The notes under the pieces: generated by a model
The model's input: only the letters and a program-made list of their open reading frames with translations
Databases searched by the model: none
What the model was told of the DNA's origin: nothing
Origin: Chelativorans alearensis
Lineage (GTDB): Bacteria > Pseudomonadota > Alphaproteobacteria > Rhizobiales > Rhizobiaceae
Direction: 5' to 3'
Assembly: GCF_010993735.1 (NCBI RefSeq)
Contig: NZ_WQNI01000017.1
Coordinates: 1 to 64,000 of the forward strand
Length of the DNA stretch: 64,000 bases
Position numbers and translations under genes: made by a program
Shown here: positions 3,665 to 46,832 of the stretch, piece by piece
How the letters are laid out: each line of letters starts with the position of its first letter
Numbering within the stretch: position 1 is the first letter of the stretch

Positions 3665-3679
3665 TGGCACGACACTTGC
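3665..3679 (+). promoter_or_regulatory. Sigma-54 (-24/-12) promoter of the thiolase/ETF operon
   Basis: TGGCAC-GACAC-TTGC matches the sigma-54 consensus perfectly and lies about 65 bases before the thiolase-like start codon. A second copy with one mismatch, CGGCAC-GACGT-TTGC, follows at 3679-3693, giving two overlapping candidates 14 bases apart. The string GGTTGTCCGG occurs twice upstream (near 3503 and 3629) and could mark activator sites, though this is only suggestive. Confidence 0.9.
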
Positions 3680-3743
3680 GGCACGACGTTTGCGTGACGG
3701 CCGTCACGCGACGACGCAACCTCTACCGCTTCCAGGAGCCGAC

Positions 3744-4910
3744 ATGACGCTTCGCAATCGTGCTGCAATTGTCGGAATCGGTGAAAGCGACATAGGGCGC
3801 CTGCCTCACATGTCCGGCCTCGGCCTCAACGCCCAGGCGGCCCGACGCGCCATCGCCGATGCGGGCATCAGCCATCGGGACATTGACGGCCTGCTCACAG
3901 CCTATTCCTTCACCGAACCGTACTTCATGCTGGGAGCGGTCCTGGCGGAGTACCTCGGCCTGCGTCCGTCATACTGCGGTTCGTTGGTGGTCGGCGGTGC
4001 CTCTCCCACGGCCATGCTGCACCATGCGGCGCAAGCGGTCAGCACCGGCGCGGCCCAGGTTGTTCTGGTCTGTGCTGGGGAGAACCGGGCCACCGGCATG
4101 TCGAGCGACGACACGCTCCAAGCGTTGTCGGCGGTCGGGCATCCCTATTTCGAGGCGCCCTACGGAGTCGGCATTCCCTCGCTCTACGCCCTTGTCGCGA
4201 ACGCCTACATGCGCCGCTACGGCACCACACGGGAAGAGATGGCGGCGGTTGCCGTGACCTTCAGGAACCATGCCCTGAAGCACCCCAATGCCCATATGAA
4301 GAAGCCGCTGACGATCGAGGATGTCATCGGATCGAAGCCCATTTCCGATCCTCTGTGCATGTACGATTGCTGCCTCATCTCCGACGCCGGTGGTGCCTTT
4401 GTCGTCACGACGCCGGAACGTGCCAAGGATCTTGCTGGCACACCGGTCTATCTTGCCGGGATCGGCGAATGTCATACGCACGAACACCTGACCTCGGCGC
4501 CCAGCCTGACCGAGTTCGGTGCGACCGAGTCGGGGCGGCGCGCCTATGTGATGGCAGGCCTGGGCCCCTCGGACATGGACCTGGCCATGCTTTACGATTG
4601 CTTCACTATAGTCCCGATCATCGAAATGGAGGAGCTCGGTCTCGCGCCACGCGGGGAAGGCGGTGCCTTCTTCGCAAAGGGGCATGCCGCAATCGGCGGC
4701 GATCTTCCGGTCAATACGCATGGCGGGATGCTCAGCCACGCCCATGCCGGTGCGGTTGGCGGCCTGATGGCGATCGTGGAGGCCGTACGTCAACTGCGCG
4801 GCGAGGCAGGGAAGCGTCAGGTCGCAGGCGCCAGTACCGCGCTCATCCACGGCGAGGGCGGTATCCTCTCGTCGCACTGTACGGCCATTCTGACCGCGTC
4901 ACCGCGATGA
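3744..4910 (+). CDS. Thiolase-fold protein of the SCP-x/Ltp2 type, probable aldolase or acyltransferase
   Basis: The 388-residue protein has the thiolase fold but, where thiolases carry their nucleophilic Cys, it reads GGAS (84-87). The C-terminal half has YDCFTI (about 284-289) and NTHGG (about 324-328). Loss of the Cys with a YDxFT motif is typical of the lipid-transfer-protein branch; in steroid-degrading bacteria Ltp2 is a retro-aldolase that works with a DUF35 protein and a MaoC hydratase. A MaoC gene follows directly and a DUF35 gene sits at 24012, so a retro-aldol carbon-carbon cleavage is a plausible job here (inference). The ATG at 3744 has AGGAG just upstream. First gene of the operon continuing to etfA. 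Confidence 0.85.
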   Translation: MTLRNRAAIVGIGESDIGRLPHMSGLGLNAQAARRAIADAGISHRDIDGLLTAYSFTEPYFMLGAVLAEYLGLRPSYCGSLVVGGASPTAMLHHAAQAVSTGAAQVVLVCAGENRATGMSSDDTLQALSAVGHPYFEAPYGVGIPSLYALVANAYMRRYGTTREEMAAVAVTFRNHALKHPNAHMKKPLTIEDVIGSKPISDPLCMYDCCLISDAGGAFVVTTPERAKDLAGTPVYLAGIGECHTHEHLTSAPSLTEFGATESGRRAYVMAGLGPSDMDLAMLYDCFTIVPIIEMEELGLAPRGEGGAFFAKGHAAIGGDLPVNTHGGMLSHAHAGAVGGLMAIVEAVRQLRGEAGKRQVAGASTALIHGEGGILSSHCTAILTASPR

Positions 4911-4930
4911 ACGGGAAAGGAGCCTGACCG

Positions 4931-5389
4931 ATGTCAAGCAGGGCAATGTATTTCGAAGATTTTACCGAAGGCCAAGTGATTAAGACGCCGCGGCGCACGA
5001 TTACCTCGACCGATATCGTAAATTTCGCCTGTCTCTCGGGCGATTTCAACGGTGTGCACTCCGACTATGAATACTGCAAGACGACGCCCTTCGGCGAGCC
5101 GATCGCCCATGCGCCTCTGATCTATGCCGTCATGGGCGGGCTGCAGTACGCCAGCGGCGTGAACGATGGCACGTTGATCGCCTTGCTCGGGATCGACGAG
5201 TGGCGGATGTCGAAACCGGTCAAGCATGGGGATACGGTGCACATGCGCTCCACAGTGATTGCGAAGCGTGAGACCTCGAAGCCGGACCGCGGAATCGTGA
5301 CCTTCCGGCGCGAGTTCGTCAACCAGCGCGACGAGGCCGTCCAGAGCATGAGGGCGACGTTTATGTATCGCCGGCGTCCGGCGGATTGA
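4931..5389 (+). CDS. MaoC-like (R)-specific enoyl-CoA hydratase
   Basis: A 152-residue single hot-dog domain protein. The hydratase signature is present as SGDFNGVHSDYEY (about 36-48), with Asp and His in the usual catalytic places, followed by a Pro-Ile-Ala-His-Ala segment. Such enzymes add water to 2-enoyl-CoA. Length fits a one-domain MaoC protein, which normally dimerises. It lies 20 bases after the thiolase-like gene and before the ETF genes. In the Ltp2 system the matching MaoC protein makes the beta-hydroxyacyl-CoA that the aldolase cleaves, so these two may act in sequence. Confidence 0.88.
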   Translation: MSSRAMYFEDFTEGQVIKTPRRTITSTDIVNFACLSGDFNGVHSDYEYCKTTPFGEPIAHAPLIYAVMGGLQYASGVNDGTLIALLGIDEWRMSKPVKHGDTVHMRSTVIAKRETSKPDRGIVTFRREFVNQRDEAVQSMRATFMYRRRPAD

Positions 5390-5461
5390 CGGCCAACCGA
5401 TCAGCCGTCTGTCAGGAACACGGCCGGCGGGGGAAAGGAAAACAAACTTGGAGCCATGCCC

Positions 5462-6220
5462 ATGAAGGTCCTTGTCCCGGTCAAGCGGGTTATCGACTAC
5501 AACGTCAAGGTCCGCGTGAAATCGGACGGCAGCGGGGTCGACCTTTCGAACGTGAAGATGTCGATGAACCCGTTCGACGAGATCGCGGTGGAAGAGGCGA
5601 TCCGGCTGAAGGAAGCGGGTACGGCAGAAGAGGTCGTAGCCGTCAGTATCGGCGTGAAGCAGGCCCAGGAAACCTTGCGCACGGCGCTGGCGATGGGCGC
5701 GGACCGGGCGATCCTGGTGGTTGCGACCGAAGACGTTCACCAGGATATCGAGCCGCTGGCGGTGGCAAAGATCCTGAAGGCCGTGATCGCGGAGGAATTG
5801 CCCAGCCTGGTGATCGCCGGCAAGCAGGCGATCGACAATGACATGAACGCCACGGGCCAGATGCTGGCCGCACTGCTGGGCTGGAGCCAGGCGACCTTCG
5901 CTAGCGAAGTGAAGATCGACGGCGACAGCGCGCTGGTCAGGCGCGAGGTTGATGGCGGGCTGCAGACCATCCGGGTCAAGCTGCCGGCCATCGCCACCGC
6001 CGACCTGCGCCTGAATGAGCCGCGCTATGCCAGCCTGCCCAACATCATGAAGGCGAAGAAGAAGCCGCTGGAGGAGAAGACAGCCGCCGATTACGGCATC
6101 GACGTTGCGCCGCGGCTCGAAATCGTCAAGACCATCGAGCCGGAGGCGCGCCAAGCGGGTGAGATCGTGCCCGACGTGGACGCGCTGGTGGCTAAGCTGA
6201 AAAAGCGGGGGGTCGTCTGA
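5462..6220 (+). CDS. etfB: Electron transfer flavoprotein beta subunit
   Basis: This 252-residue protein is the small subunit of ETF, which accepts electrons from acyl-CoA dehydrogenases and passes them to ETF:quinone oxidoreductase. It opens with [16 protein letters not shown] and contains the family pattern [11 protein letters not shown] and the [18 protein letters not shown] region that binds nucleotide. The ATG at 5462 was preferred to the one at 5456 because GGAG at 5451-5454 is then correctly spaced. The stop TGA overlaps the etfA ATG, so the two are translationally coupled. It probably serves the acyl-CoA dehydrogenases at 16688 and 26680; no ETF:quinone oxidoreductase gene is in the window. 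Confidence 0.97.
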
Positions 6221-7143
6221 TGACCGTTCTTCTGTTTGCCGAAGTGAATTCCGGGAAACTGGCCGCCGACGTCACGGCCAAGGCCTTCACCGTAGCCGGG
6301 GCGCTGGGCGAGGTGGCGATCCTCTGCGCAGGAGCCTCGGCGAAAGCGGCGGCCGAGGCGGCGGCGAAACTCGGCCCGGCCAAGGTGCTCTGCGCCGAGC
6401 ATCCCGACCTCGACCACCGCCTGGCAGAAACCACCGCAGATCTGATCGTGTCGCTGGCGGGCGATTTCAGCCACATCGTGGCCCCGGCCACGACCGACGC
6501 CAAGAACATTATGCCGCGGGTGGCGGCGCTCCTGGACGTCATGGTGATTTCGGATATCTCGGGCGTGGTCGATGCCGACACGTTCGAGCGCCCCGTCTAT
6601 GCCGGCAACGCCATCCAGACGGTGAAATCCTCGGACACGACCAAGGTCATCACCGTGCGCAGCTCGAGCTTCGACGCCGCGCCGATGGACGGCGCGGCCC
6701 CGGTCGAAGATGTGGCCGTGCCGGCCGCCTCGGGCCTGAGCGAATGGGCGGAGGACAAGGTGGCCGAAAGCAATCGGCCGGAACTGACCAGCGCGGGCAT
6801 CGTCGTCTCGGGCGGCCGTGGCGTCGGCTCGGAGGAGGATTTCCAGCTGATCGAGAAGCTCGCCGACAAGCTCGGCGCCGCAGTTGGCGCCAGCCGCGCC
6901 GCGGTCGATTCCGGCTTCGCCCCGAATGACTGGCAGGTGGGTCAGACCGGCAAGGTCGTGGCGCCCGATCTCTACATCGCTGTCGGTATCTCGGGCGCGA
7001 TCCAGCACCTGGCGGGGATGAAGGATTCGAAGATCATCGTCGCCATCAACAAGGACAAAGAGGCGCCCATCTTTCAGGTCGCCGATTACGGCCTCGTCGC
7101 CGACCTCTTCGACGCCGTGCCCGAACTCATCGAAAAGTTCTGA
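6220..7143 (+). CDS. etfA: Electron transfer flavoprotein alpha subunit
   Basis: The 307-residue large ETF subunit carries the FAD. The C-terminal FAD-binding region is clear: [13 protein letters not shown] (about 188-200), then [30 protein letters not shown] and [10 protein letters not shown], followed by [17 protein letters not shown]. Length is normal. The start overlaps the etfB stop by one base. Together with etfB it gives the island its own electron acceptor for acyl-CoA oxidation. Last gene of the sigma-54 operon unless the beta-lactamase-fold gene 120 bases downstream is also read from it. Confidence 0.97.
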
Positions 7144-8082: not shown

Positions 8083-9657
8083 CTACCGGCTCTGGGCCGC
8101 CTCACCGTCCCGTGCGCCGGCCGCCTCGTTCCCTGGCAACGGCGCCTCGACGACCTTCCGCTGAAATGACTGGCGAACCGACTGCCACGCGCTCCATAGA
8201 AGGAGTGCCGCCGTGATCAGCAGGAACATGAGGCTGACGGGGCGCTCGAAGAAGATCGAGACGTCGCCGGCCGAGATAATCAAGGCGCGTCGGAAATACT
8301 CTTCCACCATCGGCCCGAGAACGAAGCCGAGCAGCAGCGGCGCCACCGGGAACCGGATCAGGCGCATGAAATAGCCGAGCAGGCCGAAGGCGATCACCGT
8401 GATGACGTCGAACGTCGTCTGGTGAATTGAATAGACGCCAATGCAAGCGAACATCAGGATCGCCGGATAGAGGACGTGGTACGGGATCATCAGGACCCGC
8501 ACCCAGATCCCGATCAGCGGGACATTGAGGATGAGCAGCATGATGTTCCCGATCCAGAAGCTCATCACCACGCCCCAGAACAGGTCGGGGTGATTAGCCA
8601 TCATGCTCGGCCCCGGCGTGATGCCGTGGATCATCAGAACCCCGAGCATCAGCGCCATCGTCACGCTTCCCGGAATGCCTAGAGTGAGTGTCGGGATGAA
8701 GGCGGTCTGATCGGCGGCGTTGTTGGCTGCCTCGGGGGCGACGATTCCCTCGATCGCACCCTTGCCGAAGCGCGACGGATCGCGCGCGACCTTCCGCTCG
8801 ATCGCGTAGGACATGAACGAGGCGATGGTCGCACCCGCGCCGGGAAGGGCGCCGACAAAGGAGCCGGTGCTGGAGCCGCGCAATATCGGGAGCCACGACC
8901 GTCGCACGTCGTCCCGCGTCGGGACCATCGAGCGCAGGCCGATGCTCTTGCTCGTCAGGGTACCCCCTTTGAATTTCCGCAGGCTGCTGATCACTTCCGC
9001 AACGCCGAAAGACCCCATGGCGATCGCCGACATAGTGAACCCTTCAGTCAGTTCGGTGATGCCGAAGGTATAGCGGGACGTGCCCGTGTTGATATCCGTT
9101 CCCACGATGCCGAGGAAGATGCCCAGCACAACCATGGCGATGCCCTTGATCTGCGAGTCCGACGTGATCGACGAGGCGGCGACCAGGCCCATCACCATGA
9201 GTGAGAAATACTCCGGCGAGTGGAAGGACAGGCCGATCTCAACGAAGAGCGGCGAGAAGACCATCATGATGATAATGCCGATGCTGGCGCCAACGAACGA
9301 GGCGATGGCGGTCATGAAGAGCGCGATTCCGGCCCGTCCCTGCTGCGCCATCGGATAGCCGTCGATGCAGGTCACGGCGCTCGATCCGGTCCCCGGCAGC
9401 CTGAGCAGGATCGAGGCGATCGAGCCGCCATAGGCGGTGCCGTAATAGATGCCGGCCAGCATCACCAGCGCTTCGAGCGGTTCCAGGTGAAAGGTAATCG
9501 GGATCAGCATCGAGATGGTCGCCAGAGCGCCGATGCCGGGGATGACGCCGACGAATGTGCCGAGCGTTACGCCGATGAAGCAATAGAACAGGCTGTTCGG
9601 AGCGGTCGCTGCCGAAAGACCCAGGATGGTATAGTCGACCAGGGCTTCGAACATCAC
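8083..9657 (-). CDS. tctA: Tripartite tricarboxylate transporter large permease TctA (second copy)
   Basis: This 524-residue TctA protein has the same repeated signatures as the copy at 121-1647: GVIPGIGAL near residue 40, the TAYGGSIASILLRLPG stretch near 75-90, and ALPGAGATIASF near 270, within about a dozen membrane helices. It is about 16 residues longer, with a charged tail. GTG at 9657 and ATG at 9654 are both possible starts and sit directly after the tctB stop. With tctB (9659-10108) and the divergent tctC (10433-11368) it forms a complete transporter. Confidence 0.95.
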   Translation of the reverse strand: MMFEALVDYTILGLSAATAPNSLFYCFIGVTLGTFVGVIPGIGALATISMLIPITFHLEPLEALVMLAGIYYGTAYGGSIASILLRLPGTGSSAVTCIDGYPMAQQGRAGIALFMTAIASFVGASIGIIIMMVFSPLFVEIGLSFHSPEYFSLMVMGLVAASSITSDSQIKGIAMVVLGIFLGIVGTDINTGTSRYTFGITELTEGFTMSAIAMGSFGVAEVISSLRKFKGGTLTSKSIGLRSMVPTRDDVRRSWLPILRGSSTGSFVGALPGAGATIASFMSYAIERKVARDPSRFGKGAIEGIVAPEAANNAADQTAFIPTLTLGIPGSVTMALMLGVLMIHGITPGPSMMANHPDLFWGVVMSFWIGNIMLLILNVPLIGIWVRVLMIPYHVLYPAILMFACIGVYSIHQTTFDVITVIAFGLLGYFMRLIRFPVAPLLLGFVLGPMVEEYFRRALIISAGDVSIFFERPVSLMFLLITAALLLWSAWQSVRQSFQRKVVEAPLPGNEAAGARDGEAAQSR

Positions 9658-9658
9658 A

Positions 9659-10108
9659 TCACCACGGCCAGTTCAAGGTGGGAAGCTGCAGGTCGAGCCC
9701 AACCTGAAAGATGAGCACCGCACCGCCCGCAAGCACCACAGCGAGGATCGCCGAGCCGAGCCAGCCGAGCTTGCCGTCGGCGCAGGTGGCGATCAGGGTC
9801 AGAACGACGATCGCCGGCACGAGGCCGAAGGGCTCGACCAGCAGAACGAAGGCGAGCATCGCCGTGGTGACCGAGATCAGCGACCTCGGCTCGACCTTGA
9901 GCGCCTCGCCCTCCCGGAACAGGGCCGGGATCAGGATGACCGCACCGAGAACCGCGAGGATCACGCCGAGCGCCGCCGGGAACATGCCCGGCCCCATCCG
10001 GGACACGGTGCCAAGACTGAGCGTGGTCACCGCGTAATAGGCGATGAAGGCGCCGATCGCGACCAACGCCCCGCCACCGAACATGTCTCCGTAATCCCTG
10101 TTCGACAC
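9659..10108 (-). CDS. tctB: Tripartite tricarboxylate transporter small subunit TctB
   Basis: A 149-residue protein with four hydrophobic segments, the length and layout of TctB. The GTG at 10108 has GGGAGGAAG upstream at good spacing; the upstream frame has no better start. The last 38 codons are almost identical in DNA to the partial gene at the left edge of the window. It precedes tctA with one base between stop and GTG, and is first in a two-gene operon read from the minus-strand sigma-54 promoter at 10171-10185. Confidence 0.92.
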   Translation of the reverse strand: MSNRDYGDMFGGGALVAIGAFIAYYAVTTLSLGTVSRMGPGMFPAALGVILAVLGAVILIPALFREGEALKVEPRSLISVTTAMLAFVLLVEPFGLVPAIVVLTLIATCADGKLGWLGSAILAVVLAGGAVLIFQVGLDLQLPTLNWPW

Positions 10109-10170: not shown

Positions 10171-10185
10171 GCAAACCGCGTGCCA
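10171..10185 (-). promoter_or_regulatory. Sigma-54 promoter of tctBA
   Basis: Read on the minus strand this is TGGCAC-GCGGT-TTGC, a perfect -24/-12 element 63 bases before the tctB start. It is the exact mirror of the tctC promoter at 10233-10247; the 16-base arms (10170-10185 and 10233-10248) are perfect inverted copies. Confidence 0.92.
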
Positions 10186-10232: not shown

Positions 10233-10247
10233 TGGCACGCGGTTTGC
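10233..10247 (+). promoter_or_regulatory. Sigma-54 promoter of tctC
   Basis: TGGCAC-GCGGT-TTGC on the plus strand, a perfect element facing tctC with a leader of about 175 bases. The spacer sequence is the same as in the divergent tctBA promoter, so binding strength should be equal. Confidence 0.92.
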
Positions 10248-10432
10248 GTATGAATGCGCCGTGGACAAGGGACCTGGTCGTAGGTTGCTGGCCATGCCTT
10301 GCGGGACGGATGCTGGTGAGTCCGGGAGGGGACGCCGGTCGTCTTGCGGCTCAAGGCAGGGACATTCGCAATGCGGTGCAGAGACGATTGAGGCCGAGGC
10401 TCCGCCACAGTGACAACATGGGAGTGAGACAG

Positions 10433-11368
10433 ATGAAATCAAGAACAAGGCTCGGCGTATCGCTGGCACTGGCGCTGTCGGCATTGGTGCCGGCCGTCGC
10501 CTCCGGCCAAGACTATCCGTCCAAGACGATCACGATTTACACGGCCGCCGCTGAAGGCAACGCCGACGTCACCGCACGGCTGATCGCAACCCATGCGGAT
10601 CTCGGCCAGCCGGTCGTCGTCGTCAATCAGCCGTCGGTGCTTTCGGCGCAGCAGGTCGCGCAGGCTGATCCAGATGGCTATTCGCTATTGGTGCTGGGCA
10701 AGAGCTTCTACCTTGCGCCGATCTTCCAGGCAGATACCCCCTATGACCCGATCGCGCAGTTCGCGCCGATTTCGAAGATCACCAGCACGCCGAACATCAT
10801 GGTGGTCCACCCCGACCTGCCCGACACGGTGGAAGGCGTCATCGCCAAGGCCAAGGCCGAACCAGGTGCGTTCAACTACGCAACCGGAGCGTCGGGCGGG
10901 ACGGCCCATCTCGCCGCGGCCCTGCTGCTCGACCTCACCGGTATCGAGATGGAGCGCGTCATCTATCGCGGCGGCGGCCCATCGATGGTCGGTGTCATGA
11001 GCAACGAAAGCCAGCTTTCCTTCGGAACGCCGGCGCAGGTCGGTCCGCTTGTCGAGGCCGGCAACCTGAAGGCCATCGCGGTGACGAGCCGCAATCCCTC
11101 TTCGGTGGCGCCGGACCTGCCGACCGTCGCAGAAACTGTTCCGGGCTTCCAGATGACCTCGATCCAGGGTTTCTGGACGACGGCGGGCACGCCTCAGCCA
11201 ATCATCGACAAGCTCAACAAGGAGGTCGAACGGATCCTCAACCTGCCCGAGGTCAAGGACATCCTCCAGAAGATCGGCGCCGATGCGGATCACTCGATGC
11301 CGCAGGATTTCGCCGCCGAGATGAAGGAAGACATCGAGACGACCAAACGTCTGATGGCGGGGAACTAA
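10433..11368 (+). CDS. tctC: TctC/Bug-family periplasmic solute-binding protein
   Basis: The 311-residue protein is the extracytoplasmic receptor of a tripartite tricarboxylate transporter. An N-terminal signal peptide (about 1-25, ending VASGQ) precedes the Bug-fold opening DYPSKTITIYTAA. Family features include GGTAHLAAALL near residue 150 and the C-terminal PIIDKLNKEVERIL segment. ATG 10433 follows GGGAGTGAG at correct spacing. The glycines usual after the first strand (VPxxPGG) read TAAAEGN here, so ligand preference may be unusual; known Bug ligands are mostly mono- and dicarboxylates. It pairs naturally with the divergent tctBA. Confidence 0.93.
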   Translation: MKSRTRLGVSLALALSALVPAVASGQDYPSKTITIYTAAAEGNADVTARLIATHADLGQPVVVVNQPSVLSAQQVAQADPDGYSLLVLGKSFYLAPIFQADTPYDPIAQFAPISKITSTPNIMVVHPDLPDTVEGVIAKAKAEPGAFNYATGASGGTAHLAAALLLDLTGIEMERVIYRGGGPSMVGVMSNESQLSFGTPAQVGPLVEAGNLKAIAVTSRNPSSVAPDLPTVAETVPGFQMTSIQGFWTTAGTPQPIIDKLNKEVERILNLPEVKDILQKIGADADHSMPQDFAAEMKEDIETTKRLMAGN

Positions 11369-14171: not shown

Positions 14172-14175
14172 GGGG

Positions 14176-19321: not shown

Positions 19322-19324
19322 CGG

Positions 19325-29545: not shown

Positions 29546-29575
29546 GTGCATCATTCACAAACAATGGAAGTTGAT

Positions 29576-30487: not shown

Positions 30488-30503
30488 GCGTGGGGAGAAA
30501 GCC

Positions 30504-32231: not shown

Positions 32232-32249
32232 AGGGAGGAAGGCAAGGAT

Positions 32250-33002: not shown

Positions 33003-33053
33003 TAATTCCCCGAAGATCGGCTGTGCGCCGGCAGGCAAGGTGGCGGGCGGCCC

Positions 33054-34010: not shown

Positions 34011-34056
34011 GGCCGCGGGTCACCGTTTTTCCGACAACCGGGAGGAGTGGAAGCTG

Positions 34057-34764: not shown

Positions 34765-34776
34765 GGACCGGGCCCG

Positions 34777-38124: not shown

Positions 38125-38184
38125 GTCGCTTGGCCTCGTCTTGGCTTGGAGTGGGCCATTCAGCCTACTGATCGTCTCTGGTTC

Positions 38185-39561: not shown

Positions 39562-39567
39562 CCGGCG

Positions 39568-41331
39568 TCAGGCATGCGATACGGCGGCCGGCCGGCTCTC
39601 CGAAAGGCGCCGGTCCCAGTCCCGTGGCAAGCGGACAGGCTTGCTGACCGGCGCGCCCTGGTTGTGGTTGCACATGTAGGCCCGCGATTGATTGCGGTCG
39701 GGATCGCCCGCGATGATGAATTCGACGGCATCCGGGGTAAGGAAGAAATCCACGATCCGGTCGGGGTCGTCGGAGTCGAGGTATTTCGCCGGCAGCACAC
39801 CCTGCTTGACCAGGGTCTTCAGATTGAACTGCCTGTTCCCGGTCGCCTGGCCGAAATGCTCGGCCGTCCCGGCGGTGATCCCGGCGTTATTCCAGAGGTA
39901 CTGCCGGATATCATCCTTGCTCCATTCCCGTGCGACCACGCTGGCCACCAGCGGGGATAGGACCAGCAGGTAGTGCCCGACGCCATGCTTAAAATCCAGC
40001 GGCACCCAGGACGAGAAGGTCCGCACCATGACCTGCATCCAGTCCCGGACATGATCCTCCGGCCGGTCGCCGGAACTGTAGATGGCCGGAGAGATGGCCA
40101 CGACGCTGCGGACCGTCACGACATTTTCGCCGGCGTCGTAGCCACGATCCTCGGCATGGGTGGGCCACCCGATATCTCGGGCGCTCTCTTCGTCTTCGGC
40201 GAGGGCGACGAGGAAACTTTGGCCGATGCTCGCCTTGTCGCCGGCGCCGGGCGGAATGCGGTAGCCGCAGATATTTCGCAGGTAAAGTCGCACGAAACGC
40301 CCGATGCTGGAATTGGCGCGGCGGCCGACACGCATCACGCCCTGTCCGGAATGCAGGCCGAGCTGATCGGCGATCGGGCCGCTGACGGTGACCAGCGGCT
40401 CCCACCCCGGCGTCGTGCCGCAGGAGTTGATCCGGAAGGTCGGATCGCACATGGCCTCGACGATGGCGACAAGGACCGGCATGTATTCCGGCCGGCATCC
40501 GGCCATGACGCCGGTGACGGCGATGCTGTGAATGGTCGCCTCACGGCCCTCAACGGGAACGGTGCCGAACGAGTCGGTCGGCGCCCGGTCGGCGAACGAC
40601 AAAAACCCGTTCACCCGTTCTGGCGTAGGCGGGACAATAGGCAGCCCGTCGCTCCACAGATTCGCGTCGAAGTGATCCTGCACCTCGTCAAAGCTGCCGG
40701 TGAAGACGACGGAACCCGGTTCCGGCTCTGCCGGCTCCACCTGCCGGGAAGCGTCGAGCCGCGCGGTGAAGGCTTCGACCAGCTCCGGGGCGGTCGTCTC
40801 GTTTACCTTTTCGGTCACGAGCTCAACACTGTCGACGCTGGGATGGCCGGGATATTCGACGATCTTGAGCGGAAGGCCGAGGCCCCGCGCAACGATCTCC
40901 GCCTGCGCTAGGAAACCGGTTGCGACCACCGAAACGGTCGCGATGCCCAGCTTCTCGATCATGGCGGCCACCCGCATGACGGCGGGCGTGCAGCCGCCGC
41001 AGGCGCCGATGCCGACGATGGCCGCGTCGCAACCCAATTCCTTCAGCTTCCCCGGCAACGCGTCGATAACGGCCTGTCCCCGTGGGCCGTGGAAGTTTCC
41101 GAAGACCGAGTAATCGACGATCTTCACCCCGTGAAAGCGATTCTTCAGATGCTCCCGGAACAGAGGATACATGACTTCGCCACGAAAATTCATATCCCAG
41201 AGCTCGCAGATCGTCTTGCCGCTGAGGTCGATGGGCCGGGCTGCGGCGTTGTCGCCAGAGACCGTACGCGGGCTGAGAGGCCAGACAACTTCGTAGCGCG
41301 GCTCGCTCGGTCTGCCAGTGCTGTATCCCAT
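39568..41331 (-). CDS. Large protein with UGSC-like Cys-Gly-Gly-Cys domain, paralogue
   Basis: This 587-residue protein has the same two-part build as the one at 30504: an N-terminal UGSC-like region with GACGGCTPAVM (about 110-120) and a C-terminal region with SDGLPIVPPTPERVNGFL, VTGVMAGCRPEYMPVLVAIVEA and GQGVMRVGRRANSSIGRFVRL. The two proteins are recognisably related over their whole length but differ at many positions, so they are old paralogues. No Sec codon is used. Each sits in a different sigma-54 operon, both near MmgE/PrpD genes, which suggests two subunits or two related reactions. Function unknown. Confidence 0.75.
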   Translation of the reverse strand: MGYSTGRPSEPRYEVVWPLSPRTVSGDNAAARPIDLSGKTICELWDMNFRGEVMYPLFREHLKNRFHGVKIVDYSVFGNFHGPRGQAVIDALPGKLKELGCDAAIVGIGACGGCTPAVMRVAAMIEKLGIATVSVVATGFLAQAEIVARGLGLPLKIVEYPGHPSVDSVELVTEKVNETTAPELVEAFTARLDASRQVEPAEPEPGSVVFTGSFDEVQDHFDANLWSDGLPIVPPTPERVNGFLSFADRAPTDSFGTVPVEGREATIHSIAVTGVMAGCRPEYMPVLVAIVEAMCDPTFRINSCGTTPGWEPLVTVSGPIADQLGLHSGQGVMRVGRRANSSIGRFVRLYLRNICGYRIPPGAGDKASIGQSFLVALAEDEESARDIGWPTHAEDRGYDAGENVVTVRSVVAISPAIYSSGDRPEDHVRDWMQVMVRTFSSWVPLDFKHGVGHYLLVLSPLVASVVAREWSKDDIRQYLWNNAGITAGTAEHFGQATGNRQFNLKTLVKQGVLPAKYLDSDDPDRIVDFFLTPDAVEFIIAGDPDRNQSRAYMCNHNQGAPVSKPVRLPRDWDRRLSESRPAAVSHA

Positions 41332-41368
41332 ATCGATCTCCCTGAGGCCGGCCGCCGGGCGCCGGTCG

Positions 41369-42205
41369 CTAGGTCTTCATGGACGGCGGCAAGCCGTCAT
41401 TATGCCCGTTGGCCCGCACTGCGCCAACGTGATCCGGAAGACGCTTTTCGATGAGCGCTGCAAGGCCCTCGCGGAATTCCGGGCTGGACATCGCCAGCAC
41501 CTGCCCGAAGTCCTCGTATTGCATCATTTCCGTCAGACTGCTTTCGAAGGATCTCAAGATGAGCTGCTTGGCAAGCCCCATCACCTCTGCGGGGCCGTTG
41601 GCCAGCTTCTCGGCAAGCGCAATGCCCTCGGCATCGACCTCATCGTCGGGAACGGCCTTCAGCGCCAGCCCAAGCTCGACGACGTCACAGGCGCTCCACT
41701 CGGCGTTGGAGAAAAGGAAATTCCGGGTGCGCGACAGTCCGATCATGCGGGGCAGGGTGAACATCGTCAAGCAATCGGGCACGACGCCGAGGCGGAAGAA
41801 GCCGGCACTGAACTTCGCGCTTTTCCCAACGATCAGGAGATCCGACATGAGGGCAAGGCCCAGCCCGCCGCCGATGGCCATTCCTCGCACGCCGCAGACA
41901 ACCGGACGGTTAAGCGCAGTCAGCGGCGGGAAAAGACCCGCCGCATGCTGGAACCGGCGGTGTACCGGCCAAGGGTCAGCCGCCTTGGTCAGCATGCGCA
42001 GGTCGCCCCCGGAGCAGAAATTCGCTCCCTTTCCGGTCAGGTAGATTGCCCGGACCGTATGGTCGTCTTCGATGGTCCGGGTGACGTCCCTTAGCGAAAA
42101 GCGCATTTCCCTGGTCAGGGAGTTGCTCGCCTGGACATTGTCCAGCCGGACGACCAGGATGCCGCCCCGGCGCTCGGTCTCGAGATGAGGGTAACTGGTG
42201 ATCAT
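41369..42205 (-). CDS. Enoyl-CoA hydratase/isomerase family protein
   Basis: A 278-residue crotonase-fold protein. Oxyanion-hole segments are NFCSGGDLRML (about 63-73) and GMAIGGGLGLALMSD (about 108-122). In the catalytic stretch FSAGFFRLGVVPDCLTMFTLPRMIG the usual glutamates are replaced (Phe/Arg and Asp), as in isomerases or 1,4-dienoyl-type hydratases rather than classical crotonase. ATG 42205 overlaps the end of the upstream SDR gene by four bases, so the longer frame to 42220 is not used. Confidence 0.9.
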   Translation of the reverse strand: MITSYPHLETERRGGILVVRLDNVQASNSLTREMRFSLRDVTRTIEDDHTVRAIYLTGKGANFCSGGDLRMLTKAADPWPVHRRFQHAAGLFPPLTALNRPVVCGVRGMAIGGGLGLALMSDLLIVGKSAKFSAGFFRLGVVPDCLTMFTLPRMIGLSRTRNFLFSNAEWSACDVVELGLALKAVPDDEVDAEGIALAEKLANGPAEVMGLAKQLILRSFESSLTEMMQYEDFGQVLAMSSPEFREGLAALIEKRLPDHVGAVRANGHNDGLPPSMKT

Positions 42206-43020
42206 GCCGTTTCCTTCCACAGGCCTTCTGGAACGTATCCCGTGCTGGCACGGCTGCGGTTGCGACCGCCGTCAACAACGAGATCGGCGCCGGTAACATA
42301 CTGGCCGGCATCCGAGCACAGGAAGACCGCGGCGTTGGCGATGTCGCTGGTCTGACCGAACTTGCCGAGCGGGATCGATCCCAGTTCCAGCGCCTTGCGC
42401 CCCTGGTCTTCATAGATGCGCCGGACGCCCTCGGTGTCGCCGATTGCGCCGGGGGCGATGGTGTTGCAGCGGATGCCGTCCCGTCCCCATTCCGCGCTGA
42501 GTGTCCGTATCAGTGACATGATCCCGGCCTTCGCCGCACCGGCATGGGCGCATCCCGGCCAGCCCTCGAGCGCCCGGGTGGTTGAGATCGCAAGGAAACG
42601 ACCGCCGAATCTCGACGCCTTCAGAGCTTCATAGGAGGCGCGGGCGCAGAAGAACGTTCCGTTGAGGTCGATGTCGATGACCACCTTCCACGCGTTCGGC
42701 GACATTTCCGCCGCAGGCACGACGAAGTTTCCCGCGGCGTTCGCGACCACGATGTCGAGCGATCCGTAGATCTCGCCGGCGGTCTTCACGGCAGCCTCGA
42801 CCTCTTCGTATTTGCGCACGTCGCACTTCACGCGGGCGGCCTCGGCGCCAAGACATCTCAACTCCTCCAGGGCGGAGTCCAGCCGTTCGACATTCCGGCT
42901 CGCCAGGAGAAGCTTTGCGCCCGCCGCGGCGAGTGCCTTCGCGATCCCAAGGCCAATGCCGCTGCCGCCACCGGTAATGAGCGCCACCCGGCCCGCCAAC
43001 GCATCTTTGGTATAGGTCAT
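42202..43020 (-). CDS. SDR-fold protein resembling 2,4-dienoyl-CoA reductase
   Basis: A 272-residue SDR with TGGGSGIGLGIAKALAAAG (about 16-34) and NAAGNF. The active-site region reads STTRALEGWPGCAHAGAAKAG: the Lys is kept but Tyr is absent, as in peroxisomal-type 2,4-dienoyl-CoA reductases, which carry HAGSAK in this place. It would then remove double bonds from polyunsaturated acyl-CoA using NADPH. ATG 43020 has GGGAG upstream and is 74 bases from the -12 of the sigma-54 promoter at 43094-43108; the frame extends to 43089, but that start has no ribosome site as good. Confidence 0.9.
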   Translation of the reverse strand: MTYTKDALAGRVALITGGGSGIGLGIAKALAAAGAKLLLASRNVERLDSALEELRCLGAEAARVKCDVRKYEEVEAAVKTAGEIYGSLDIVVANAAGNFVVPAAEMSPNAWKVVIDIDLNGTFFCARASYEALKASRFGGRFLAISTTRALEGWPGCAHAGAAKAGIMSLIRTLSAEWGRDGIRCNTIAPGAIGDTEGVRRIYEDQGRKALELGSIPLGKFGQTSDIANAAVFLCSDAGQYVTGADLVVDGGRNRSRASTGYVPEGLWKETA

Positions 43021-43093: not shown

Positions 43094-43108
43094 GCAATAG
43101 CTGTGCCA
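43094..43108 (-). promoter_or_regulatory. Sigma-54 promoter inside the minus-strand operon
   Basis: Minus-strand TGGCAC-AGCTA-TTGC, a perfect element in the 257-base gap between tctC and the SDR gene. It would give the genes 43020-36736 their own start in addition to read-through from tctC. The rest of the gap contains two copies of a GCCGGGCCCA-type repeat near 43190-43220 and no gene. Confidence 0.88.
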
Positions 43109-43277: not shown

Positions 43278-44264
43278 TCATTTCGCCGCCGTGTTGAACT
43301 CTTCGGCGATCTTCTTGCCCCGCTCGATCTCGCTTTTCAGGATAGCGACGACTTCGTCCGGCGTGCTCGCCTCGGCGTCAAGCCCGCGGCCGCGGAAGGT
43401 TTTCTGCGCTTCCGGCGAATTCAGGAAATTGACGGCCGCCTGGTTCAGCCTGTTGACGATGTCCTGGGGAACGCCGGCCGGTGCCCAGAGAACCTGCGCG
43501 CTAGCGGCTTCGGCATCGGTCACCCCAGCTTCGGTGATGCTCCGCAGATCCGGGACGAGCGGAGAGCGTTCGTTAGCCATGACAGCGAGCATCTCGAGCC
43601 GGCCCGAATCCACATGCGGCTGGAGTAGGCCGATGGTTCCGAAGGTGACCATGACCTCGCCGGACACCGCCGCCGTGATCGCCTGGCCGGAACCCTTGTA
43701 GGGGATATACCGGATGTCCAGATCGCCGGCGCGCGTCTTGAACAGCTCACCCGCGCGATGGTGTGCCGAGCCCACCTGGCCCGCCGAATAGGTGAGCTTT
43801 CCAGGACTCTCCTTTGCATAGGCGATCAGGTCCTCGACCGTTTCGATCCCGAGATCGGTGTTGACGGCAAGAATGCTGGGCGATCCCGCGATCGTCGTGA
43901 TCGGCTGCAGGTCCCTAAGGGTGTCATAGGTGGCGACATCAGGCTGTAGGAGCGGGAACATCCAAAGGCCGCTGCCGTAGAACAGGAGCGTATAACCGTC
44001 GGGTTCCGCCTTGGTCACGGCCTCGATGCCGACGAGGTTGGAGCGGTTCTCGACCACGAACGGCTGCCCCAGTTCCTTCTCCAGCCCCTCTGCGAGCACG
44101 CGCGCCGCCCAGTCGCCGCTGCCGCCCGCGGACGGCGCGAAGAGCTGCACAGCCTTAGTCGGGTAATCTTGGGCGTGGCCGGCACCGCCCGCGACGGCCA
44201 AGGCGATTGCCGCGAATGTCGCGATAAGTCCGCGACGACCCCAGGTGTTGATGTTGCGGTTCAT
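43278..44264 (-). CDS. tctC: TctC/Bug-family periplasmic solute-binding protein
   Basis: A 328-residue receptor protein with a long signal peptide (Arg-rich start, hydrophobic core LIATFAAIALAVAGG, cleavage near GHAQ at about 32) and the Bug opening DYPTKAVQLFAPSAGGSGDW. Later marks are EPDGYTLLFYGSG and IPYKGSGQAITAAVSGEV. ATG 44264 is chosen over 44270 because the ribosome site GGGAGGA is directly against 44270 and seven bases from 44264. It has no TctAB genes beside it, so it must borrow one of the two permeases in the window or elsewhere. It is first in the operon from the promoter at 44437. Confidence 0.93.
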   Translation of the reverse strand: MNRNINTWGRRGLIATFAAIALAVAGGAGHAQDYPTKAVQLFAPSAGGSGDWAARVLAEGLEKELGQPFVVENRSNLVGIEAVTKAEPDGYTLLFYGSGLWMFPLLQPDVATYDTLRDLQPITTIAGSPSILAVNTDLGIETVEDLIAYAKESPGKLTYSAGQVGSAHHRAGELFKTRAGDLDIRYIPYKGSGQAITAAVSGEVMVTFGTIGLLQPHVDSGRLEMLAVMANERSPLVPDLRSITEAGVTDAEAASAQVLWAPAGVPQDIVNRLNQAAVNFLNSPEAQKTFRGRGLDAEASTPDEVVAILKSEIERGKKIAEEFNTAAK

Positions 44265-44436: not shown

Positions 44437-44451
44437 GCAATTCCTGTGCCA
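44437..44451 (-). promoter_or_regulatory. Sigma-54 promoter of the minus-strand tctC operon
   Basis: Minus-strand TGGCAC-AGGAA-TTGC, a perfect element 173 bases before the tctC start, back to back with the promoter at 44546-44560. The 412-base gap 44265-44676 holds only these two elements as far as can be seen. Confidence 0.9.
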
Positions 44452-44545: not shown

Positions 44546-44560
44546 TGGCACGGCTATTGC
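44546..44560 (+). promoter_or_regulatory. Sigma-54 promoter of the MenB/BadI-like gene
   Basis: TGGCAC-GGCTA-TTGC, a perfect element 117 bases before the start codon at 44677. Confidence 0.9.
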
Positions 44561-44676: not shown

Positions 44677-45456
44677 ATGGGATTCGAGGAGATCACCTAT
44701 AGCGAGGACGGCCCGATCGGCACGCTCACGCTCAACCGTCCCGGTGACGGAAACATGTTCACGGCCCGCATGTGCCACGAGGTGCGGGATTGTCTAAACG
44801 CGGTGCGCCGCGAAACACGGACGAGGGTTATCGTGTTGACCGGAGCCGGCGAGAAGTTCTTCTGCCTTGGCGGCCGCAAGGACGGCATGGAGGATACGCT
44901 TCTGTATGCAGGCGTGCTGCCGACGCTCGAGATGTACGAGGCCATCGACCGTCTCCAGAAGCCGGTCATCGCGTCAGTCAATGGCTATGCCGTCGGCGGC
45001 GGCAATGTTCTGCAGATGGTCTGCGACATCACGATCGCCAAGGAGAGCGCGATCTTCAGGCAGGTCGGGCCGATGATGGGCAGCTTCGATGCCGGTTATG
45101 GAACTTGGTATCTCGAAGACCTGGTCGGCAAGAAGCGCGCCAAGGAGATGTGGTACCGCAACCCGAAACTCTCTGCCGCCGAAGCGCTGGAATGGGGATT
45201 GATCAATCACGTGGTGCCGGATGACGAGCTCGAGAGCGCGACCCGCAAGCTGGCGCTCGAAATCGCCGATCGGGGCGCCTTGGCTCTGGCCTCTGTGAAG
45301 GCGGCCTTCAATGCGCGTCACGGCGGGGTCTCCGGCCTGTCGCGGATGGCGCACGACCTGCTGCTGCGGACCTATCTCGAGACCGAAGAGCACCACGAGC
45401 TGTCAGCCGCCTTCGCCGAGCGGCGCGCACCCGACACGGACAAGTTCGGTCACTGA
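44677..45456 (+). CDS. Crotonase-fold hydrolase of the MenB/BadI type
   Basis: A 259-residue crotonase-family protein whose active-site region differs from hydratases: it reads GSFDAGYGTWYLEDLVGKKRAKEMWYRNPKLSAAEALEWGL (from about residue 130), the pattern of MenB (naphthoyl-CoA synthase) and BadI (2-ketocyclohexanecarboxyl-CoA hydrolase), including the Asp of SFDAGYG. The oxyanion-hole segment is GYAVGGGNVLQMVCD. BadI-type enzymes open a six-membered 2-keto ring to a pimelyl-CoA chain; MenB-type enzymes close a ring. In a catabolic island ring opening is more likely (inference). It has its own sigma-54 promoter and is followed by a separately promoted gene. Confidence 0.85.
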   Translation: MGFEEITYSEDGPIGTLTLNRPGDGNMFTARMCHEVRDCLNAVRRETRTRVIVLTGAGEKFFCLGGRKDGMEDTLLYAGVLPTLEMYEAIDRLQKPVIASVNGYAVGGGNVLQMVCDITIAKESAIFRQVGPMMGSFDAGYGTWYLEDLVGKKRAKEMWYRNPKLSAAEALEWGLINHVVPDDELESATRKLALEIADRGALALASVKAAFNARHGGVSGLSRMAHDLLLRTYLETEEHHELSAAFAERRAPDTDKFGH

Positions 45457-45469
45457 TCCGGGGCCGGGT

Positions 45470-45484
45470 TGGCACGCATTTTGC
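45470..45484 (+). promoter_or_regulatory. Sigma-54 promoter of the thioredoxin reductase gene
   Basis: TGGCAC-GCATT-TTGC, a perfect element 14 bases after the preceding stop codon and 73 bases before the start codon at 45557. Confidence 0.9.
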
Positions 45485-45556
45485 GGATTTCAGGACGATC
45501 GCCGGCAGGGGTTGACGGACCGGCGGCAAACCACCGAGACGGAGCGCAACAAGGAC

Positions 45557-46510
45557 ATGTCTTCTTCTGCCCGACACTTCCGCCTTTTAATCCTGGGCTC
45601 CGGGCCGGCAGGTTACACGGCCGCCATCTATGCGGCGCGCGCCGGGCTGGCGCCGGCGCTGATCAGCGGCTGGATGCCAGGCGGGCAGTTGATGATCACG
45701 ACCGATGTCGAAAACTGGCCGGCCGACGCCAATGCCGTCAACGGACCTGAGCTTATGGCCCGTTTCGCGCAGCATGCCGAGCAACTCGGGACGGAATTGC
45801 TCACCGACCAGATCGTGTCGGTTGAGCTGGGCGCCCGACCGTTCCGCCTGATAGGCGAGTTGCAGGAATACACCTGTCACGCGCTGATTGTCGCAACCGG
45901 TGCCACCGCGCGCTACCTCGGCCTCGACAAGGAGCAGGAGCTTTTGGGTCGCGGCGTCTCTCCTTGCGCGGTTTGCGACGGCTACCCATTCAAGGGCAAG
46001 CGGGTCGCCATGGTCGGTGGAGGCAACACCGCCGTCGAGGAAGCGCTCTACATGAGCAACATCGCCGAGCATGTGACGGTCGTTCACCGCCGCGACCAGT
46101 TCCGCGCGGACAAGATCCTCGTCGACCGGCTCTTGGAGAAGGTAGACGAGGGTTCCGTGTCGATCATCTGGGATCACGTGGTCGAGGAAATCCTCAGTGA
46201 CGACGGCGGCGTGATCGGGATCGCCCTTAAGTCCACCAAGACCGGCATCCGGCAAGAGCGCGAGGTCTCGGCGATGTTCGTCGCCATCGGGCACACGCCC
46301 AACACCGGGATCTTTAAGGGCCAGCTTGAGATGGAAAACGGCTATATCGTCACCAAGGGCGGGCGCGCCGGGGGGGCGACCCGCACCAGCATCGACGGCG
46401 TCTTCGCCGCGGGCGACGTGCAGGACATGATCTATCGTCAGGCGGTGACGAGCGCGGCCAGCGGCTGCATGGCGGCTCTCGACGCGGAGCGGTATCTGAG
46501 CCGGTTCTAG
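45557..46510 (+). CDS. trxB: Thioredoxin reductase-like flavoprotein
   Basis: The 317-residue protein has the TrxB layout: FAD motif GSGPAGYTAAIYAARAG (about 12-28), the redox-active pair in CAVCDGYPFKG (about 136-146), NADPH motif GGGNTAVEEALYMS (about 156-169) and the second FAD motif FAAGDVQD near 290. The canonical pair is CATC, so the change is mild. ATG 45557 follows AAGGAC and fits the length of TrxB. No thioredoxin gene is adjacent; under a sigma-54 promoter in this island it may reduce a dedicated partner, possibly the Cys-Gly-Gly-Cys proteins at 30504 and 39568 (inference). A 32-base piece of the gene is repeated exactly at 49514. Confidence 0.92.
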   Translation: MSSSARHFRLLILGSGPAGYTAAIYAARAGLAPALISGWMPGGQLMITTDVENWPADANAVNGPELMARFAQHAEQLGTELLTDQIVSVELGARPFRLIGELQEYTCHALIVATGATARYLGLDKEQELLGRGVSPCAVCDGYPFKGKRVAMVGGGNTAVEEALYMSNIAEHVTVVHRRDQFRADKILVDRLLEKVDEGSVSIIWDHVVEEILSDDGGVIGIALKSTKTGIRQEREVSAMFVAIGHTPNTGIFKGQLEMENGYIVTKGGRAGGATRTSIDGVFAAGDVQDMIYRQAVTSAASGCMAALDAERYLSRF

Positions 46511-46817
46511 GACCCGAGCAGGGGGCTCTCACGAGCAATGTGTCCGGTTGCGTCTCGCAAAGGCGTCGCCGTACGACAATCACGTGTTTTACGGGGATGA
46601 AGCCTTTGGTCCTCCGGTTGGCGCGCGCTGCCTTCGGCGCATTGGGTATGAGCGGCCGGATGCTGCTGTCGTCGGGGAACAGGTTGATGATGACCGCGTT
46701 CGGCCATACCGGCAGCAAGCATCTGCTCGGGGCGGTTCGCCATTGGAGGCCGGTACGCAATTTGCCGGGTCGCGGTAGTCGGGCGCGTGCCCCTCTTGTG
46801 CAACAGAGCCGTCGACA

Positions 46818-46832
46818 TGGCACAAGATTTGC
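46818..46832 (+). promoter_or_regulatory. Sigma-54 promoter without a clear target
   Basis: TGGCAC-AAGAT-TTGC, a perfect element. The next gene starts at 47114, which would leave an unusually long leader of about 270 bases. Nothing convincing is coded between 46511 and 47113; the short frames there match no family I recognise. A small RNA, a lost gene, or regulation of the hydrolase are the options. Confidence 0.7.

What the first reader, a model, noticed from the sequence alone, without database searches (positions are those of the whole stretch)
3665..46832. A catabolic island with its own sigma-54 regulon: twelve perfect -24/-12 promoters
Twelve intergenic perfect matches to TGGCAC-N5-TTGC (3665, 10171-, 10233, 22235-, 22388, 24474, 26111, 43094-, 44437-, 44546, 45470, 46818; minus sign marks the minus strand) lie between 3.6 and 46.9 kb. 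Eleven point at a nearby gene and together they precede nearly every catabolic gene in this part. A fixed ten-base pattern is expected about 0.1 times on both strands of 64 kb, somewhat more with GC bias. An enhancer-binding activator and an rpoN gene lie in the same stretch. A whole degradation programme under one local sigma-54 and one activator appears unusual; most known sigma-54 catabolic systems control one or two operons with the housekeeping rpoN.
Basis: partly seen in the sequence, partly recalled or inferred. Interest (0 to 1): 0.9.

Follow-up and report, generated by a model that had tools for sequence, protein, structure and literature searches.

The report
Catabolic island with its own sigma-54
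A patchily distributed block of bacterial degradation genes appears to carry its own variant of the RNA polymerase sigma-54 subunit, a matching activator protein and about a dozen near-identical promoters, so the whole pathway may be switched on as a private, self-contained regulon.

Summary
All 12 listed TGGCAC-N5-TTGC sites are present; a 13th (62313) is coding. Shuffles give 0.13 per window. The 5.70-Mb genome has 29 such sites; 12 lie in this 43-kb stretch (0.22 expected; ~93-fold denser), only at N5 spacing. One precedes the local rpoN; another rpoN lies elsewhere.

The arrangement recurs. Plasmids pP73A (Celeribacter indicus) and pPABY4 (Salipiger abyssi) carry the activator (71%, 65%) beside a related RpoN (53%, 46%), fifteen shared CoA-thioester/BadI-type pathway genes, and 18 and 15 perfect sites (reversed control 0). 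Six plasmids with the BadI-like gene and a more distant activator but no rpoN average one site per 182 kb, against one per 8.5 kb. These RpoNs form a supported clade with altered region I and recognition helix.

Most likely a portable sigma-54/activator/promoter module, in logic like the nifA2-rpoN2 regulon of the M. loti symbiosis island, but catabolic and with a distinct sigma clade. That RpoN2, not housekeeping RpoN, drives these promoters is inferred. A Rhodovulum cluster has few perfect sites; no enhancer motif was found.

The parts
1816..3500 (-). enhancer-binding activator (weak PAS-like match, AAA+ sigma-54 interaction domain with GSFTGA loop, Fis-type HTH); true start uncertain, frame extends to 3768
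   Evidence: PF00158 226.5 bits, PF02954; 71/65/71% identical to the activators beside rpoN in pP73A, pPABY4 and Rhodovulum SAT37; loop
3665..3679 (+). -24/-12 site before thiolase-like/MaoC/EtfB/EtfA genes; a 1-mismatch copy starts at 3679
   Evidence: start ATG 3744
3744..7143 (+). thiolase-like, MaoC hydratase, EtfB, EtfA
   Evidence: MaoC and Etf 71-83%, thiolase 46-50% in pP73A/pPABY4
8083..10108 (-). TctB and TctA uptake genes
   Evidence: GTG 10108 with RBS
10171..10185 (-). -24/-12 site before TctB-TctA
10233..10247 (+). -24/-12 site before TctC; identical 15-mer to 10171
10400..11368 (+). TctC binding protein (start uncertain)
12747..22201 (-). pathway operon: two 3-hydroxyacyl-CoA dehydrogenases, quinone oxidoreductase-like, acyl-CoA dehydrogenase, SDR, enoyl-CoA hydratase, acyl-CoA ligase, CaiB CoA-transferase
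   Evidence: 53-82% conserved in three other modules
22235..22249 (-). -24/-12 site before the CaiB1 operon
   Evidence: sites before CaiB1 in pP73A and pPABY4
22388..22402 (+). -24/-12 site before rpoN2 (predicted autoregulation)
   Evidence: a perfect site before rpoN also in pP73A, none at 0-1 mismatch in pPABY4
22513..24012 (+). rpoN2, second sigma-54, 499 aa
   Evidence: TIGR02395 380 bits; all three Pfam sigma-54 domains; start from alignment and RBS
24012..24440 (+). OB-fold/zinc-ribbon protein following rpoN2
   Evidence: PF01796, PF12172; 60-62% identical near rpoN in the other modules
24474..24488 (+). -24/-12 site before PrpD-like gene
24606..26015 (+). MmgE/PrpD-like
26111..26125 (+). 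-24/-12 site before MaoC2 operon
26148..36690 (+). MaoC, acyl-CoA dehydrogenase, MaoC, CoA-transferase, CitE-like lyase, UGSC, SDR, OCD, DLH, PrpD-like genes (start 26148 or 26175)
36736..43020 (-). two PrpD-like, UGSC, enoyl-CoA hydratase (ECH2), SDR3
   Evidence: ECH2/SDR3 64-79% conserved in three other modules
43094..43108 (-). -24/-12 site before SDR3
   Evidence: perfect sites before SDR3 also in pP73A and Rhodovulum
43278..44264 (-). TctC binding protein
   Evidence: start
44437..44451 (-). -24/-12 site before TctC2
44546..44560 (+). -24/-12 site before BadI-like gene
   Evidence: sites before BadI in pP73A and pPABY4
44677..45456 (+). BadI/MenB-like hydrolase
   Evidence: below equivalog cut-offs; 73-77% conserved
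45470..45484 (+). -24/-12 site before thioredoxin-reductase-like gene
45557..46510 (+). thioredoxin-reductase-like
   Evidence: TIGR01292 over cut-off; start
46818..46832 (+). -24/-12 site before a gene of unknown family
   Evidence: probable start ATG 47114 with RBS, 282 bp away (read)
47114..48748 (+). protein with no family match, alpha/beta-hydrolase-like by eye only

Best explanation
A horizontally distributed catabolic module whose promoters are largely of the -24/-12 type and which brings its own sigma-54 (RpoN2, a distinct clade) and cognate enhancer-binding activator. An inducer, probably a pathway substrate sensed by the activator's N-terminal domain, releases the activator; it remodels RNA polymerase-RpoN2 at about 12 promoters, including rpoN2's own, so a few molecules (or housekeeping RpoN1) start a positive loop that turns on uptake (Tct), CoA activation, beta-oxidation and BadI-like ring opening together. 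Shown by sequence: the sites and their enrichment, the genes, the rpoN-activator linkage, the recurrence on other replicons, the clade. Inferred: that RpoN2 and this activator act on these sites, the loop, the inducer, the substrate class (alicyclic or related acyl-CoA).
For: Enrichment and spacing control. Recurrence of activator + RpoN + pathway + dense sites on pP73A (18 sites/155 kb) and pPABY4 (15/134 kb), reversed control 0 on both. Sites before the same genes: thiolase-like, CaiB1 and BadI in window, pP73A and pPABY4; rpoN in window and pP73A; SDR3 in window, pP73A and Rhodovulum. Linkage: 24 of 60 C-type RpoNs share their longest-contig length with one of 119 listed activators (own included), against 0 of 45 SRV, 1 of 13 SRA and 0 of 1 untyped RpoNs. 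Replicons with the BadI-like gene and an activator but no rpoN have few sites: 18 on six plasmids totalling 3.28 Mb, against 46 (one coding) on 390 kb for C9, pP73A and pPABY4. RpoN clade with changed activator-contact region and recognition helix.
Against: No expression data. Rhodovulum SAT37 has the pair and the pathway but only 2 perfect sites in about 51 kb of fetched cluster DNA, and its genome shows little excess over the reversed control (16 against 13). No shared enhancer motif was found. The perfect consensus is what ordinary sigma-54 also reads, so the sites do not prove RpoN2 specificity. The comparator activators are only 45-52% identical and most comparators are betaproteobacteria, so presence of rpoN is confounded with activator and host. 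pPABY4 has no 0-1-mismatch site before its rpoN. In pP73A the activator's HTH is diverged and a second activator is present.
Confidence: 0.74

Rival explanations
1. The promoters are real but read mainly by housekeeping RpoN1 with the local activator; RpoN2 is a redundant or decaying passenger.
For: Sites match the ordinary consensus. A related activator and BadI-type genes occur without any rpoN on six plasmids (pAA02, P. fungorum, C. basilensis, A. denitrificans, pANY103b, PGU19) and, with a single rpoN elsewhere in the genome, in G528 and G276 (G276 only 74% complete). RpoN2 is less conserved (46-53%) than most enzymes.
Against: RpoN2 keeps all three domains and the RpoN box, belongs to a coherent clade and that clade is repeatedly linked to this activator; a site is kept before rpoN in two replicons; high site density goes with this rpoN in three of four modules.
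Confidence: 0.2
2. Several activators, not one, run these promoters with RpoN2 or RpoN1.
For: No common enhancer motif; pP73A carries a second related activator gene (probably the 65%-identical P0184, by contig and protein length); six PF00158 matches above 140 bits in this genome.
Against: Only one PF00158 match lies on contig C9 and it is the one linked to this RpoN clade.
Confidence: 0.15
3. Chance or base-composition artefact.
For: The window is 63% GC; some GC-rich gapped words of the same shape also reach 9-13 copies in the window.
Against: This word is expected 0.13 times, occurs only at N5, lies before genes, and recurs on two other replicons with 0 in the reversed control.
Confidence: 0.01

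Closest known systems
NifA2-RpoN2 regulon of Mesorhizobium loti symbiosis island ICEMlSymR7A (PMC3538637)
   Same: Mobile island with its own rpoN and activator, rpoN in an operon behind a -24/-12 site, 16 candidate promoters, housekeeping rpoN elsewhere (introduction and passages read).
   Different: Nitrogen fixation, 502 kb; by my count 3 of 16 listed promoters fit the perfect pattern; NifA has a known enhancer site. The two rhizobial plasmid RpoNs examined are SRV type and fall outside the clade found here; the M. loti RpoN2 itself was not examined.
Paralogous RpoN1-4 of Cereibacter (Rhodobacter) sphaeroides with cognate activators (PMC11999139)
   Same: Separate RpoN copies paired with separate activators; promoter position -11 and activator contact give specificity (passages read).
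   Different: nif, flagellar and xrpA targets; not catabolic islands. Sequences of those RpoNs were not available to me, so their place relative to this clade is untested.
Classical sigma-54 catabolic systems such as XylR/Pu of TOL (recalled)
   Same: Enhancer-binding activator on a catabolic plasmid, -24/-12 promoters.
   Different: Use the host RpoN and one or two promoters (recalled).
Plasmid CaiB-BadI-ligase operons with an activator and no rpoN (P. fungorum, C. basilensis, A. denitrificans, Aminobacter)
   Same: Pathway genes in similar order, related activator (45-52%), a 0-1-mismatch -24/-12 site between activator and operon.
   Different: 1 to 5 perfect sites on the whole plasmid instead of a dozen or more; no rpoN on the plasmid.

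Membership tests
sigma-54 (RpoN) family | activator-interacting, core-binding and DNA-binding domains with RpoN box | tested here: met
   PF00309, PF04963, PF04552; RRTVAKYR present
bacterial enhancer-binding proteins | AAA+ domain with GAFTGA-type loop and C-terminal HTH | tested here: met
   PF00158, PF02954; GSFTGA variant, seen in 114 of 119 listed activators, own included
sigma-54 promoters | -24/-12 sequence with fixed spacing upstream of genes | tested here: met
sigma-54 promoters | transcript start about 12 bp after the -12 box, activator dependence | not testable with these tools
   needs RNA data
island-borne dedicated RpoN/activator regulon (M. loti type) | rpoN and activator on the element, housekeeping rpoN elsewhere, many element promoters | tested here: met
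   that the stretch is a mobile element was not shown
island-borne dedicated RpoN/activator regulon (M. loti type) | shared upstream activator sequence | tested here: inconclusive
   no convincing motif
island-borne dedicated RpoN/activator regulon (M. loti type) | genetic dependence of element genes on the element rpoN | not testable with these tools
   none
rhizobial symbiotic RpoN2 | clusters with rhizobial RpoN2 in a tree | tested here: not met
   R. tropici and R. ruizarguesonis plasmid RpoNs group with ordinary RpoNs; special side 37 of 51 rows, SH-aLRT 98

The most novel reading that the evidence does not exclude
The RpoN clade is an orthogonal sigma-54: changes next to Arg383 (S382C, V384A in E. 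coli numbering), a rewritten region I and a GSFTGA activator make a private sigma/activator/promoter channel that moves between alphaproteobacteria (and, by source names of a MAG, Burkholderiaceae), at least twice on plasmids, and lets a single-operon pathway expand into a replicon-wide regulon of 12-18 promoters insulated from the host.
Probability: 0.4. Interest if true: 0.86.

Novelty: new variant of a known kind. Interest (0 to 1): 0.7.

Why it matters
It gives a natural series (related pathway with and without its own sigma-54) in which to test why a mobile catabolic pathway would carry a core transcription subunit, and whether acquiring one drives regulon expansion. If RpoN2 proves orthogonal, it is also a ready-made insulated expression system for catabolic pathways.

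Tried and rejected
Enhancer search: the dyad GCA-N7-TGC looked strongly enriched upstream of the sites (26 of 45 regions) but is the reverse complement of divergent promoters and fell to 5 of 45 after masking perfect and 1-mismatch sites. CGT-N8-ACG stayed at 13 of 45 after masking (window 4 of 12, pP73A 3 of 18, pPABY4 6 of 15; background 83 of 855 unmasked) but at scattered distances, and was not among the top dyads of 1088 in a wider masked background; the top ones there were words seen in 2 to 5 regions, some with almost no background counts. Not taken as an enhancer. A palindromic expectation-maximisation search over 36 merged regions scored below six random sets at all four widths tried; the null was drawn from whole replicons, coding DNA included, so this is a weak test.

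The -11 base: G in 26, T in 11, A in 8, C in 0 of 45 sites. Against the M. loti list (5 G of 16, counted from the table) this is weak (P 0.086 for all; 0.031 for window plus pP73A, a subset chosen after looking). Not claimed as a difference.

Chance, and a rhizobial RpoN2 origin, were rejected. UGSC2 was tried as an island marker and gave only weak plasmid hits (17 records, none covering 80%). The other 16 genome sites: by a crude codon-composition test some lie inside frames and some precede uptake-type genes (NMT1-like, TctB, SBP_bac_3), so the regulon may reach beyond the island or these may be RpoN1 targets; not resolved. No rep or par gene was seen in 10 of the 23 frames listed from the rest of contig C9, so whether C9 is a plasmid is open.
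Full report
OBSERVATION. The pattern TGGCAC-N5-TTGC occurs 13 times in the window: the 12 listed places and 62313, which lies inside a long open frame. Dinucleotide shuffles give 0.13 on average, at most 1 in any of 100 shuffles. The genome in which the window lies (5,702,301 bp, 36 contigs) has 29 perfect sites and 6 for the pattern read backwards; the stretch 3665-46832 holds 12 of the 29, 0.22 expected. Changing the gap is the cleanest control: TGGCAC-Nk-TTGC for k = 0 to 11 gives 13 at k=5 and at most 2 at any other k in the window. With one mismatch allowed the window has 20 matches, 4.3 expected.

WHAT LIES THERE. An enhancer-binding activator is on the minus strand below about 3.5 kb. 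rpoN2 starts at 22513 behind the site at 22388 and is followed by an OB-fold protein. The rest is mostly CoA-thioester catabolism: thiolase-like, MaoC, ETF, acyl-CoA dehydrogenases, hydratases, 3-hydroxyacyl-CoA dehydrogenases, an acyl-CoA ligase, CaiB-type transferases, a BadI/MenB-like hydrolase, PrpD-like and UGSC proteins, and Tct uptake genes. For these pathway enzymes no NCBIfam equivalog cut-off was reached in the rows shown (one subfamily cut-off was, for a 3-hydroxyacyl-CoA dehydrogenase), so the substrate is a guess (alicyclic or similar acids). The genome has two rpoN genes; the better-scoring one (422 bits) is on contig C12 and is 97% identical to that of a genus mate. None of the 15 genus mates searched has a close copy of RpoN2: their best matches are 40-45% identical; one of them, G008, has a second match (43%) that I did not examine.

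RECURRENCE. A scan of genome contigs with RpoN2 found a Rhodovulum MAG (SAT37) with the activator (71%), RpoN (48%), the OB-fold protein and pathway genes together. Among 72,556 plasmids the two best matches for both proteins are the same two records: Celeribacter indicus pP73A (activator 71%, RpoN 53%) and Salipiger abyssi pPABY4 (65%, 46%), with the two genes side by side in each. Sixteen window genes have counterparts at 46-83% identity on both plasmids (the activator and 15 pathway genes: thiolase-like, MaoC1, EtfB, EtfA, HAD1, x391, HAD2, ACAD1, SDR1, ECH1, AMP ligase, CaiB1, ECH2, SDR3, BadI), besides RpoN and the OB-fold protein; the Tct, MFS, UGSC, CitE, TrxR, DLH and other genes have none at the cut-off used, and PrpD-like and second ACAD/CaiB genes only 31-35%. 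pP73A has 18 perfect sites and pPABY4 15, with 0 on each for the reversed pattern, again essentially only at N5 (at most 1 at any other gap). Sites sit before the same genes: thiolase-like, CaiB1 and BadI in all three replicons, rpoN in the window and pP73A; none was found at 0-1 mismatch before rpoN in pPABY4. Rhodovulum is the exception: 2 perfect sites in about 51 kb fetched, one before an acyl-CoA dehydrogenase and one before SDR3, with weaker GG-N10-GC look-alikes seen by eye before rpoN, CaiB1 and others; its genome-wide count (16) is close to the reversed control (13).

LINKAGE. In the two protein searches the longest-contig length serves as a fingerprint. 24 of 60 RpoN relatives with the C-type helix (CRA/YRA/CRV) share that length with one of the 119 listed activators; 0 of 45 SRV-type, 1 of 13 SRA-type and 0 of 1 untyped do (from the 120 best rows each, own RpoN left out, one activator without a length dropped). 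A shared length is strong but indirect evidence for a shared contig; three of the 24 are contigs under 5 kb. In sampled genomes the pair is rare: RpoN2 at E <= 1e-116 in 1 of 385 class and 1 of 398 phylum genomes, both times the window's own; the activator at E <= 1e-105 in 3 of 385, own included.

THE SIGMA FACTOR. The four module RpoNs share a region I of the form ITxxVIQSI where most ordinary ones read MTPQLxQSI, and a recognition helix ending CRA where ordinary ones end SRV. Alignment to solved E. coli sigma-54 places the changes at 382 and 384, either side of Arg383 (numbering from the 20-residue offset between chains; that Arg383 reads the -12 element is recalled). In a 51-row tree, thinned by me from 147 rows plus four added, all 37 CRA- and SRA-type rows form one side of a branch (SH-aLRT 98) and two rhizobial plasmid RpoNs fall outside. 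In a 141-row tree (six fragmentary rows left out) the starred set is 59 C-type plus 10 SRA rows (97). One ordinary RpoN (L015) also reads SRA, so SRA alone is not diagnostic; L015 was not in the 51-row tree.

COMPARATORS WITHOUT THEIR OWN SIGMA. On plasmids the BadI-like protein also occurs at 78-83% identity in Paraburkholderia, Cupriavidus, Burkholderia, Achromobacter and Aminobacter records that also hold activators 45-52% identical to the window's. Of the five annotated records I opened with an activator nearby, four show it facing a CaiB-BadI-ligase operon and pANY103b a BadI-ligase operon with an unannotated gap where CaiB would be. Ancylobacter has similar enzymes without an activator in the fetched stretch; PGU19 is unannotated and I did not check its other pathway genes. 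None of the six plasmids tested has an rpoN; G528 and G276 have one rpoN each, elsewhere, G276 being only 74% complete. A -24/-12 site with 0 or 1 mismatch, facing the operon, lies beside the activator in 7 of 7 spacers examined (pAA02, P. fungorum, C. basilensis, A. denitrificans, pANY103b, G528, G276; PGU19 not examined). In the 37.6-kb pAA02 stretch 9 sites with 0-1 mismatch occur against 4.25 expected. Perfect sites (reversed control in brackets): pAA02 5 [1] in 452 kb, P. fungorum 1 [1] in 295, C. basilensis 2 [1] in 425, A. denitrificans 5 [0] in 363, pANY103b 3 [0] in 301, PGU19 2 [1] in 1441, G528 8 [11] in 5.6 Mb. That is 18 in 3.28 Mb of plasmid, against 46 (one of them coding) in 390 kb for contig C9, pP73A and pPABY4, about 21-fold. 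The two sets are not independent samples and differ in activator identity and partly in class, so the association is suggestive, not a test.

HOW IT MOST LIKELY WORKS. One-operon modules use the host sigma-54. In the lineage here an extra sigma-54 joined the activator, its gene came under a -24/-12 promoter, and uptake and side-pathway operons were recruited to the same promoter type. The activator would respond to a pathway metabolite through its N-terminal half (only a weak PAS match, below Pfam's cut-off). The sites, genes, clade and recurrence are shown; sigma assignment, feedback, inducer, substrate and the order of evolution are inferred.

COMPARISON WITH THE LITERATURE. The nearest precedent is ICEMlSymR7A, whose nifA2 and NifA-activated prxS-rpoN2 serve 16 candidate promoters; by my reading of its Table 1, 3 of 16 fit the perfect pattern (PMC3538637, introduction and passages). 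C. sphaeroides shows that RpoN paralogues can be tied to particular activators and that base -11 matters (PMC11999139, passages). Bradyrhizobium DOA9 has a plasmid RpoN with a restricted predicted regulon (PMC13207237, passages). A survey reports multiple rpoN genes in about 5% of the organisms studied (PMC12316311, passages). In six searches of the open PMC library none of the rows listed (15 of 17, 10 of 223, 12 of 42, 12 of 25, 9 of 9, 9 of 9) is by title or abstract start about a catabolic island or plasmid with its own rpoN regulon; 'pP73A' has no occurrence in the 12 papers listed. Subscription papers were not searched.

VERDICT. Observation confirmed, interpretation supported with the causal step open; a new variant of a known kind, with an unusually good comparative series.

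Noticed in passing
L081:36828-41386 and L086:10365-15424 (pP73A): pP73A holds two copies of the BadI-ligase-hydratase-SDR-acyl-CoA dehydrogenase operon with the same protein accessions (WP_043872147 to WP_043872151), a recent duplication inside one plasmid.
   Followed up: no
window 10171-10247: Two divergent sites carry the same 15-mer in inverted orientation, 47 bp apart.
   Followed up: no
window 3665-3693: A second, 1-mismatch -24/-12 site starts 14 bp after the first, overlapping its last base.
   Followed up: no
window 49050-49740: The sequence looks by eye like a decayed transposase or insertion-sequence remnant just after the island; two frames tested gave no Pfam match.
   Followed up: partly
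G000:C2:238720-238734 (L073:6721, minus): Outside the island, a site with the identical 15-mer of 44437 lies at the 5' end of an NMT1-like binding protein frame; C6:34323 and C23:410119 precede another NMT1-like gene and TctB. Possible distant regulon members.
   Followed up: partly
L084:15527-17185 (pP73A): A second activator gene lies on pP73A, and the HTH of the activator beside rpoN is diverged there, as if roles were split.
   Followed up: no
window 30504-32231 and 39568-41331: Two UGSC-family proteins of about 580 aa with only the N-terminal third in the Pfam model; plasmid relatives of the second, several in haloarchaea, are mostly annotated hypothetical.
   Followed up: no
G008:C1:2230780-2231940: One genus mate has a second RpoN match (43%, 314 bits) that was not examined.
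   Followed up: no
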